From the IMG/VR virus record IMGVR_UViG_3300036790_000126, positions 1 to 49,688 of that record: a DNA stretch of 49,688 nucleotides. One strand, 5' to 3'. Each line of letters starts with the position of its first letter. Within the stretch, counting starts at the first letter, position 1. The notes under the pieces are model-generated. The model did no database searches. It was not told the origin of the DNA and was given only the letters and a program-made list of their open reading frames with translations. Origin of the DNA: a virus. Both the position numbers and the translations under genes were made by a program. Below are positions 20,652-28,544 of the stretch, one piece after another.

Positions 20652-20958
20652 CCGGGCGTGGATTTCGATTGGGATCGGTGTGGTGGCCTACGACTTGCTG
20701 GCTGCACCCGGTCAGACCCTATCTGAGGGCGCCGACCGGTACATGCTGTCCCATCCCTGGATCACCCGGGCCGTGGCCGCAGCTCTGGCGGGGCATGTCT
20801 GCAACGTTCTCAGGCCGGAATATGACCCCATCCATTTGTTGTTCGCGGGCGCCCGCGCGTGGAGGGAGGCGCGATGGACTTCGGGGCGCTCTCACCAGAG
20901 AGGGGCGTGGACCTATCAACGGGCTGGAGGGCTTCGGCATCGCCCGTCGGACTCGTAA
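20635..20958 (+). CDS. Small membrane-associated protein (DUF7427-like)
   Basis: 107 residues starting MLRPADRAWISIGIGVVAYD. It matches the family of mycobacteriophage proteins with MLRPADRAW, a short TM, then DRYMLSHPWITRAVA and a DPIHLLF box. Family members usually end soon after that box. Here the last 35 residues (from about GARAWREAR) run into the inverted-repeat segment and look unrelated, so the C-terminus may be a late extension. Confidence 0.7.
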   Translation: MLRPADRAWISIGIGVVAYDLLAAPGQTLSEGADRYMLSHPWITRAVAAALAGHVCNVLRPEYDPIHLLFAGARAWREARWTSGRSHQRGAWTYQRAGGLRHRPSDS

Positions 20959-20978
20959 TTCGTCTCGCGGCCAGCTGA
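20874..20978 (+). pseudogene. Possible PPE N-terminal fragment
   Basis: A 34-codon frame starts at ATG 20874 behind a strong GGAGGGAGG ribosome site. Its first residues, MDFGALSPE, are the classic opening of PPE proteins. It then leaves the family pattern at the 23-bp inverted repeat (20906) and stops at 20976-20978. An intact PPE gene follows 130 bases later. This may be a truncated first copy of PPE interrupted by the repeat-bounded segment; chance resemblance of nine residues cannot be excluded. Confidence 0.4.
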
Positions 20979-21080
20979 GAGCCCAAAGCTCTTACTGGCT
21001 CGTGTCCAATTCTTCGCGCCTGTTCCCCCGCTGGCATCACTTGCACAGTCCTGGACGTCCAGCCCGTTGATAGGTCCACG
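20906..21080. repeat. 23-bp perfect inverted repeat bounding a 129-bp segment
   Basis: 20906-20928 (CGTGGACCTATCAACGGGCT then GGA) is the exact reverse complement of 21058-21080. The enclosed 129 bp encode nothing convincing, and no target duplication was noticed. The segment lies between a possible PPE fragment and the intact PPE gene. It could be a MITE-like insertion, an invertible segment or a large RNA hairpin regulating PPE. The exact match over 23 bases shows it is recent or constrained. Confidence 0.85.
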
Positions 21081-21107
21081 CTGACATAGACGATAGCAGG
21101 AGGGCCG

Positions 21108-22121
21108 GTGGATTTCGCGGCCATTCCTCCAGAAATCAACAGCGCCCGCATGTACGCCGGACCCGGAGCGGCATCACTAACTGAGGCGGCGAACGCGTGG
21201 AGCATGTTGTCTCAAGAACTCTCCACCGCGGCTACCGAGTATGGTTCTGCCGTTACAGCCTTGGGTGGGGTGTGGCAGGGGGCGAGCGCGGCGGCGATGA
21301 CGGCGGCCGCGCACCCGTTCCTGGGGTGGCTTCAGTCGACCAGTGAGCTGGCGGGGCAGTCGGCGGTGCAGGCGAACGCTGCGGTGGGCGCGTTCACCAC
21401 GGCCTATACCGCGACTGTCCCGCCCCAAGTAGTAGCAGCGAACCGAACCCAGTTGACAACACTGATTGTCACCAACTTGTTGGGGCAGAACACTGCTTTG
21501 ATCGCGGCTGTGGAAGCCGCGTACGCGGAGATGTGGGCGCAAGACGCCACCGCCATGTACGCCTACAGCGCAGCCTCAGGCACAGCATCATCGGGTCTAC
21601 CGAAGTTCACGCAGGCCCCGCAAACCACCAGCGGAAGCACTGCTCCTGCGGCTACTGTGGCGTCCTCTGATTTGTTCAACTCCTATGCGGAAGCATTCCT
21701 GTCGTCGGGGGCATTCCAGGACATTCCGTTGGCGTTCCTGGTGCTGTTCAACGGGATCACCGCGGAGAAAACCAGCGAACTTGCCGCCGAAGGCGCCGCA
21801 GCCGAAGCGTTCGGTGCCCCAATCGTGGCTGCACCAAGCCCATCATCTGTGAAAGCACCCGCTGCTGTGTCTGCAGCACGCGGTGCGGCCGGCCGGATCG
21901 GGGGATTAACGGTCCCACCGTCATGGGCTAGATCATTACCGCAGCCAGAACCCGCGGCGTCGCCGGTATTCGCCAAAGTCACCAACCCCAAAGCCGCCAT
22001 CCCCGCTGTCCCATTCATGCCTGTCACCGGACTCCGCAGCAACCAAGGCAAGGTCAGGAGCGAGCCCGAGTATGGGGTTGTCCGTAAGGTGATACCCGGC
22101 AGGCATCCCAGCGGAGGCTGA
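21108..22121 (+). CDS. PPE-family protein, PPE-SVP subgroup
   Basis: 337 residues from a GTG with a GCAGGAGGG ribosome site. MDFAAIPPEINSARMYAGPG, a WQG turn (Trp56), the FTTAYTATVPPQVVAANRTQ helix, LLGQNTALIAAVEAAYAEMW and AQDATAMYAYSAAS cover the full 180-residue PPE domain. GGLTVPPSW near residue 265 is the GxxSVPxxW motif of the SVP subgroup, with a PxxPxxPxxG-like end. PPE proteins are exported by type VII (ESX) systems as heterodimers with PE proteins; no PE gene lies beside it. Chromosome-type cargo in a phage. Confidence 0.92.
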   Translation: MDFAAIPPEINSARMYAGPGAASLTEAANAWSMLSQELSTAATEYGSAVTALGGVWQGASAAAMTAAAHPFLGWLQSTSELAGQSAVQANAAVGAFTTAYTATVPPQVVAANRTQLTTLIVTNLLGQNTALIAAVEAAYAEMWAQDATAMYAYSAASGTASSGLPKFTQAPQTTSGSTAPAATVASSDLFNSYAEAFLSSGAFQDIPLAFLVLFNGITAEKTSELAAEGAAAEAFGAPIVAAPSPSSVKAPAAVSAARGAAGRIGGLTVPPSWARSLPQPEPAASPVFAKVTNPKAAIPAVPFMPVTGLRSNQGKVRSEPEYGVVRKVIPGRHPSGG

Positions 22122-27519: not shown

Positions 27520-28389
27520 TTACGCCGCCCCACCGTGGCTGGCTGCAGCTTCGGCTACCGCGCGGATTTCCCTAGCAGCAACCGCTGTGTAGCGCTGTGT
27601 CGTCGCCACCGATGCGTGCCCTAGAGCTTCCTGGACTGCTCGCAGATTCCCGGTACCCGCATAGCCTCGGGTGGCGAAGCGGTGCCGAAGTTTATGCATC
27701 GACCAGCCGGGCGGCATCACCTTACTGACGAGGTGCCCGACCCGGTCGGGGCTGATGTGTCCGTCGATCTTGCCGGGGAACAGAAACCCTCCGAACGGGG
27801 ACGCCTTGGCGAGTTCGGCAGCGAGGGTGACGGTGATCGGCACGACCCGCTGTTTGTTGCCTTTGCCGTGGACGATCAGTTCGGCTCCGTCGATGCCGTT
27901 GACCAGATCATCGCTGTGTACGCAGGCGACCTCAGCGCGGCGTAACCCTGCTTCACAGGCTAGGCGCGCCATCAGGCGGGTGCGTTCGTCGGCCGTCGCC
28001 AGGATTTGGCGCCACATGTCATCGGTCGCGGGCCGCGGTGCCCCGATCGCGGCCCGCACAGATGGGAGAGTGAGTGTCGGGTCGGCATCGACCACCCCGG
28101 ATATGGCGCACCAGCGGTAGAATGATCCCAGGCTGGCCCGCAGACCTCGTCGGTGTTCAATCGAATACTGCGGACGCCCGAGAACAGCCAATAGGTCGTC
28201 GCCCGTTACATCACGGGGATGGTCGGTCCCGATGCGACGGGCTACTGCGCGGACGTGGGAGCGCCGTGTTCGCTGTGTCGCCTGGGATGTTCCGGCGGCG
28301 ATCAACCAAGTCATCCACCCGGTGACGGCGGTATCCCAAGCATATGGTAGAGAGTAAGAAAGACTATGTAATTGCCCCATGGGGTGCAT
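27520..28389 (-). CDS. int: Tyrosine integrase
   Basis: 289 residues from ATG 28389 (GGAGAG site); an upstream ATG at 28419 is less favoured. An N-terminal SAM-like domain is followed by the catalytic domain: CEAGLRRAEV (Arg), HGKGNKQRVVP (Lys), HKLRHRFATR (His-x-x-Arg), LGHASVATTQRY (His, Tyr). It catalyses attP-attB recombination. The C-terminus ends SHGGAA; a di-alanine tail is the kind of ClpXP-type degradation tag reported for Int in integration-dependent immunity phages. Confidence 0.92.
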   Translation of the reverse strand: MHPMGQLHSLSYSLPYAWDTAVTGWMTWLIAAGTSQATQRTRRSHVRAVARRIGTDHPRDVTGDDLLAVLGRPQYSIEHRRGLRASLGSFYRWCAISGVVDADPTLTLPSVRAAIGAPRPATDDMWRQILATADERTRLMARLACEAGLRRAEVACVHSDDLVNGIDGAELIVHGKGNKQRVVPITVTLAAELAKASPFGGFLFPGKIDGHISPDRVGHLVSKVMPPGWSMHKLRHRFATRGYAGTGNLRAVQEALGHASVATTQRYTAVAAREIRAVAEAAASHGGAA

Positions 28390-28544
28390 GTTTACTCTCC
28401 GGTAACTTAGATGGTGCATTCATTCAGGTGATTGCCAGCCCCAATACAACGCTTTGGCAGGTTCGCGTTCAGTAATTCCTCCCCGCCTCTCGGGGACCAA
28501 CCTCTAATCAACAGATTACAGGTTTGTAATTCACAGCGGGCGCA
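28390..28544 (-). other. int-rep gap with small palindrome
   Basis: 155 bases without a clear gene. They contain ATTACA-GGTT-TGTAAT (28515-28530), a perfect six-base palindrome, overlapping GATTACAGGTTT (28514-28525), which recurs at 28632-28643. Possibly integrase arm or core binding sites. Confidence 0.5.

What the first reader, a model, noticed from the sequence alone, without database searches (positions are those of the whole stretch)
20874..21080. Inverted-repeat segment between a PPE-like fragment and the PPE gene
A frame with a strong ribosome site starts MDFGALSPE, like a PPE N-terminus, then hits one arm of a perfect 23-bp inverted repeat; the other arm ends 28 bases before the intact PPE start. 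It may mark how PPE was acquired or duplicated, or be an invertible switch for PPE expression.
Basis: partly seen in the sequence, partly recalled or inferred. Interest (0 to 1): 0.7.

Follow-up and report, generated by a model that had tools for sequence, protein, structure and literature searches.

The report
New structured RNA in actinobacteria phages
The inverted repeat is not a genetic switch: it is the closing stem of a structured non-coding RNA, absent from the public RNA-family library, that 57 Gordonia phage records and four soil phage contigs also carry, and here it sits beside the relic of a broken PPE gene start.

Summary
The repeat is real: 24-bp perfect arms (20905-20928 / 21058-21081), 129 nt apart. 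The 177-bp segment belongs to a conserved structured element found at one place in each of 57 Gordonia phage records (Deejayvirinae, Terapinvirus) and in four soil phage contigs, unannotated as RNA and without a match in Rfam 15. The core (GGGAAC-W-GGCGCGAAGAAUUGG ... GAGACG ... ACGGRCGAUGCCG) is nearly invariant. The inverted repeat is the closing helix P1, whose sequence differs between members while pairing is kept: 24 of 35 tested pairs show compensatory changes, 93.7% of cells pair, and 0 of 500 shuffles match this. G-U versus A-C counts (61:17) put the RNA on the minus strand, antisense to the PPE gene. Carriers tested share no protein family, gene context or orientation, so I favour a self-standing, trans-acting phage RNA; transcription and function are untested. 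The fragment ATGGACTTCGGGGCGCTCTCACCAGAG (MDFGALSPE) is a genuine PPE start, not chance; it most likely marks a mosaic joint where [RNA + PPE] was recombined beside a resident PPE start. The invertible-switch idea finds no support. The PPE gene itself is unusual: no relative in 50,697 phage records, two in IMG/VR.

The parts
20905..21081 (-). Structured non-coding RNA element (177 nt), RNA sense inferred on the minus strand (5' end near 21081, 3' end near 20905)
   Evidence: Homologous elements in 57 Gordonia phage records and 4 soil contigs; CM score 93.1 bits, E 1.6e-20, with the window among the 15 sequences of the model; covariation; strand from G-U versus A-C counts. Transcription not shown.
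21058..21081 (-). P1 helix, 5' arm (right arm of the inverted repeat)
   Evidence: P1: 22 of 28 pairs with changes on both sides
20905..20928 (-). P1 helix, 3' arm (left arm of the inverted repeat)
21031..21048 (-). P2 hairpin CUGUGCA-AGUGA-UGCCAG (sequence varies between members)
   Evidence: read from the sequence; P2 position in the family from alignment A3; its covariation was not counted
21006..21029 (-). Conserved box B: GGGGGAACAGGCGCGAAGAAUUGG
   Evidence: near-invariant in all 25 distinct members
20947..21009 (-). P3 helix (UUGGAC 21009-21004 with GUCCGA 20952-20947) enclosing variable hairpin P4 (20999-20970) and the GAGACG motif (20966-20961)
   Evidence: 90.8% of cells paired, though two of its seven pairs are often unpaired or partly so
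20935..20947 (-). Conserved box A: ACGGGCGAUGCCG
   Evidence: near-invariant; its AUG is annotated as a start codon in Sienna gp54 and Hydrus gp56
20874..20900 (+). Relic of a PPE gene start (ATGGACTTCGGGGCGCTCTCACCAGAG, MDFGALSPE) with its own ribosome site
   Evidence: a PPE start lies just behind the same lysis-cassette genes in the syntenic contig L004
21108..22121 (+). Intact phage PPE gene (PPE + PPE-SVP domains, 337 aa)
   Evidence: relatives only in L004 (48% identity) and L005 (43%); none in 50,697 phage records
20635..20958 (+). DUF7427 gene; its reading frame runs on into the RNA element
   Evidence: PF24202, residues 1-77 of 107 matched

Best explanation
Shown: 20905-21081 is a member of a family of structured elements in actinobacteria phages: a long closing stem (the inverted repeat), a side hairpin P2, an arm P3-P4 and two invariant single-stranded boxes at the junction. 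Supported: it acts as RNA, read from the minus strand. Inferred: it is a self-standing small RNA made by the phage; the closed stem protects its ends and presents the invariant boxes to a host factor common to Mycobacterium- and Gordonia-type hosts, because the carriers compared share no phage protein and no gene context. In this phage, recombination brought the RNA together with a PPE gene next to a resident PPE gene, of which only the ribosome site and nine codons remain (20874-20900). PPE expression is not obviously governed by the element, since the RNA would be antisense to PPE and ends before its start codon.
For: Homologues at one place in each of 57 Gordonia phage records and in 4 soil contigs, found by pattern scans of 2.9 million viral contigs. 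P1+P3 on 25 distinct members: 93.7% of cells paired, 24/35 pairs with double-sided changes, covariation score 0.481 vs 0.163 shuffled, 0/500; slid controls pair 33-47%. G-U 61 vs A-C 17 on the minus strand, 13 vs 4 column pairs; RNAalifold -123 vs -112 kcal/mol on a first 16-member set. Carriers share no ORF family. Same gene-arm positions differ: inside the early-gene array in Gordonia phages, between convergent gene arms in the L024 and L176 contigs, between lysis genes and PPE here. PPE relic.
Against: No expression data. No promoter matching the sigma-70 consensus and no classical terminator at the expected ends of the RNA in the window. In many Gordonia copies an intrinsic-terminator-like hairpin sits directly before the inferred 5' end with little room for a promoter (read). 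15 P1 cells at one pair (columns 15/205) are unpaired and several column pairs contain A-C. The sequences are related, so the shuffle counts overstate independence. Function in trans is inferred only from lack of shared genes among seven carriers; small or diverged partners could be missed.
Confidence: 0.6

Rival explanations
1. Cis-acting RNA element: a leader or tail structure that controls stability, processing or termination of a neighbouring transcript.
For: In the Gordonia phages opened it lies upstream of a gene on the same strand, with a terminator-like hairpin before it.
Against: The downstream gene differs between phage groups (Cas4-type exonuclease in Terapinvirus, an unrelated gene in Deejayvirinae), and in the window and in L024/L176 no gene follows on the RNA strand. 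An AT-rich possible promoter box lies after the element in several Gordonia phages.
Confidence: 0.18
2. DNA-level element: a cruciform or single-strand structure used in replication, such as an origin.
For: Single copy per genome; long palindromic stem; close to recombination and helicase genes in Terapin; window cumulative GC skew minimum near 22 kb.
Against: Wobble pairs favour one strand 61:17, not expected of a DNA cruciform. No skew switch at the element in Fazel or Terapin. The window skew minimum coincides with the change in gene direction.
Confidence: 0.12
3. Mobile element with terminal inverted repeats (MITE-like or insertion-sequence remnant) inserted into a PPE gene.
For: Terminal inverted repeats; abuts an interrupted PPE start; found in unrelated phages.
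Against: No target duplication (left flank ...CAGAGAGGG, right flank TGACATAGA), one place per genome, arms differ between members while the centre is conserved, the opposite of transposon ends; PPE does not resume after it but starts anew.
Confidence: 0.06
4. Invertible switch for PPE expression.
For: Perfect inverted repeat before a surface-protein gene.
Against: Stem imperfect and diverged in relatives; no PPE gene near the element in the other carriers examined; arms covary as a helix.
Confidence: 0.02

Closest known systems
Standalone structured phage RNAs of actinobacteria and others such as GOLLD and ROOL (from my own knowledge)
   Same: Non-coding, strongly structured, single copy, phage-borne, function long unknown
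   Different: Much shorter; no Rfam family matches the window region at E <= 5 or three relatives at E <= 1
Bacterial Y RNAs / YrlA with Ro60
   Same: Long stem from the two ends, compact module, phage occurrence reported by others; one carrier contig (L182's) has a TROVE-domain gene 1.5 kb away
   Different: No Rfam match; TROVE absent from the window, from seven of eight other carrier or PPE-relative records
RNA-based prophage origins of cluster A mycobacteriophages (PMC7157519)
   Same: Phage non-coding RNA in actinobacteria
   Different: Those lie beside parABS in phages lacking integrase; this phage encodes an integrase, and no homology was found to phage records other than Gordonia phages
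Phage-encoded ESX-secreted PEST cassettes (PMC10654092), for the PPE gene
   Same: Phage gene of the PE/PPE-like type VII secreted kind
   Different: Here a full PPE-family protein (PPE + PPE-SVP), not a WXG100 plus polymorphic toxin pair

Membership tests
Conserved structured RNA family | Compensatory base changes in proposed helices | tested here: met
   24/35 pairs, 0/500 shuffles; slid controls low
Conserved structured RNA family | Strand asymmetry of wobble pairs | tested here: met
   61 G-U vs 17 A-C on minus strand
Conserved structured RNA family | Transcribed as RNA | not testable with these tools
   no expression data
Any Rfam 15 family (including YrlA / Y RNA) | Covariance-model match | tested here: not met
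   only chance-level hits
Y RNA (Ro60 partner) | Ro60/TROVE protein in the carrier | tested here: not met
   absent from window and most carriers; host gene not tested
Invertible DNA switch | Conserved recombination-site arms and inverted orientations | tested here: not met
   arms diverge; one orientation seen
MITE / insertion sequence | Target-site duplication, conserved terminal repeats, several copies | tested here: not met
PPE protein family | PPE domain over the Pfam cut-off | tested here: met
   PF00823 196.6 bits, cut-off 26
RNA-based prophage origin | Adjacent parABS, no integrase | tested here: not met
   integrase at 27520-28419; parABS was not searched for specifically

The most novel reading that the evidence does not exclude
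A previously undescribed class of phage-encoded trans-acting RNA, exchanged between otherwise unrelated actinobacteria phages, whose invariant boxes bind and redirect a host machine shared by Gordonia- and Mycobacterium-type hosts.
Probability: 0.3. Interest if true: 0.8.

Novelty: new variant of a known kind. Interest (0 to 1): 0.58.

Why it matters
Structured RNAs in phages are easily missed because annotation looks for proteins. This family is in at least 57 sequenced phage records, many isolated on tractable Gordonia strains, yet was left blank or had a start codon called inside it. Its strict core conservation across phages with no shared proteins suggests a host target that can be looked for directly. 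The window also documents a mosaic joint made at the edge of such an element, and a true PPE-family gene in a temperate phage.

Tried and rejected
Y RNA / Ro60: one carrier has TROVE, others not; no Rfam match. Host-RNA mimicry: a recurring 33-nt match in Mycobacterium genomes proved to lie in an open reading frame that reads like ClpC. Bacterial or prophage members: genome-contig scan and CM searches of 296 class-level and 396 Mycobacterium genomes gave only weak hits; those I inspected were coding chance matches (L321 was not inspected). L157, L202, L236 rejected as coding or chance. Plasmids: no convincing match. Replication origin by GC skew: not supported in Fazel or Terapin. A shared phage protein partner: none found. 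Literature on this element: none found; the library holds open-licence papers only.

Full report
Observation. The window is a 49,688-bp IMG/VR virus record that encodes terminase, portal, tape measure, a lysis cassette, an integrase and a repressor, so a temperate tailed phage. At 20905-20928 and 21058-21081 lie perfect inverted arms of 24 bp, 129 nt apart; no other copy exists in the window. The PPE gene (21108-22121) is sound: PF00823 at 196.6 bits and PPE-SVP.

The centre is conserved. A sensitive blastn of 20850-21107 against 50,697 phage records hit unannotated gaps between genes of Gordonia phages, best E = 2e-8; 57 Gordonia records match, one place each. They belong to Kenoshavirus, Tanisvirus and Terapinvirus. 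Scans of the viral contigs for the two boxes gave the same isolates plus four metagenomic contigs, L024, L043, L176 and L182, and two looser scans found no further convincing member. A covariance model scores these four at 90-106 bits and the window at 93; all but L176 were used to build it, so scores on members are by construction.

It is an RNA fold. Aligning 25 distinct members shows boxes GGGAAC-W-GGCGCGAAGAAUUGG and ACGGRCGAUGCCG almost unchanged while the outer arms change beyond recognition, e.g. UAACCAUUGUCUCUCC, UGAUCGUUGUCUCCCC, UGACUGUUAACCCACC, GCGUGGACCUAUCAACGGG, each with its matching partner. For P1 and P3, 93.7% of cells form standard pairs, 24 of 35 pairs carry changes on both sides, the covariation score is 0.481 against 0.163 in shuffles (0/500), and sliding the partner by 1-3 columns drops pairing to 33-47%. 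Related sequences inflate such counts, but the slid controls keep relatedness and collapse.

Strand. In a real RNA, departures from Watson-Crick pairing should be G-U on the transcribed strand. On the minus strand there are 61 G-U and 17 A-C cells, or 13 versus 4 distinct column pairs (first version with 16 members, 29 versus 9). P3 column 108/168 is U-G in 23 of 25 and C-G in L176, hence paired only on the minus strand. In the Gordonia phages opened this is also the direction of the genes. In the window it is antisense to DUF7427 and PPE.

Context. Carriers are otherwise unrelated: an all-against-all comparison of ORFs of the window, four soil contigs, Terapin and Fazel found no family shared by four or more other carriers. 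The downstream gene differs. In the L024 and L176 contigs the element sits between convergent genes. Annotators of Sienna and Hydrus placed a start codon at the AUG of box A, which the structure makes doubtful. No Rfam family matches. Genome searches in Actinomycetes and Mycobacterium returned only weak hits, the inspected ones coding.

The PPE relic. ATGGACTTCGGGGCGCTCTCACCAGAG has a ribosome site and reads MDFGALSPE. The degenerate pattern of this start gave 36 matches in 31 Mycobacterium genomes and 0 for the reversed control; ATGGACTTCGGGGCGCTCCCGCCAGAA in one genome is 24/27 identical. In L004, a contig with the same lysis-cassette order and a PPE gene but no element, PPE begins directly behind those genes. 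The simplest reading is that the nine codons are what remains of a resident PPE start, and that recombination joined it at about 20901-20904, at the foot of P1, to an imported [RNA element + PPE] module. The order of events is inference; no parent was found.

Mechanism. Shown: conserved covarying fold, narrow phage distribution, mosaic placement. Supported: minus-strand RNA. Inferred: self-standing small RNA acting on a host factor. Promoters and terminators were not identified in the window, and this is the main weakness. Cis-acting and DNA-level alternatives remain possible; the switch and transposon readings are disfavoured by data.

Verdict. Observation confirmed; interpretation partly supported. 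A new structured RNA family of actinobacteria phages, function unknown but experimentally accessible in laboratory Gordonia phages.

Noticed in passing
window 21108-22121; L004 4001-5098; L005 3998-5110: True PPE-family genes in phage contigs, last gene of the rightward lysis/structural arm here; no PHROG and no match in 50,697 phage records.
   Followed up: partly
L198 / G001:C1:23903-24130 (L182's contig): A TROVE/Ro60-domain gene in a soil phage contig, about 1.5 kb from the RNA element.
   Followed up: partly
L309 2574; L312 1149: Sienna gp54 and Hydrus gp56 are annotated as starting at the AUG inside the RNA element, probably too far upstream.
   Followed up: no
window 21097-21128 (+): The ribosome site and GTG start of PPE can pair with the CCTCC of its own codons (GGAGGGCCG...CGGCCATTCCTCC); folding is not better than shuffles.
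   Followed up: partly
Gordonia Deejayvirinae loci, e.g. L007 2646-2690: A strong hairpin followed by a T run lies directly before the inferred 5' end of the RNA; Terapin has a different long hairpin there.
   Followed up: no
Fazel PP978862.1 7513-9186: Annotated RNA ligase in a phage that carries the element; not found to be shared by other carriers.
   Followed up: no
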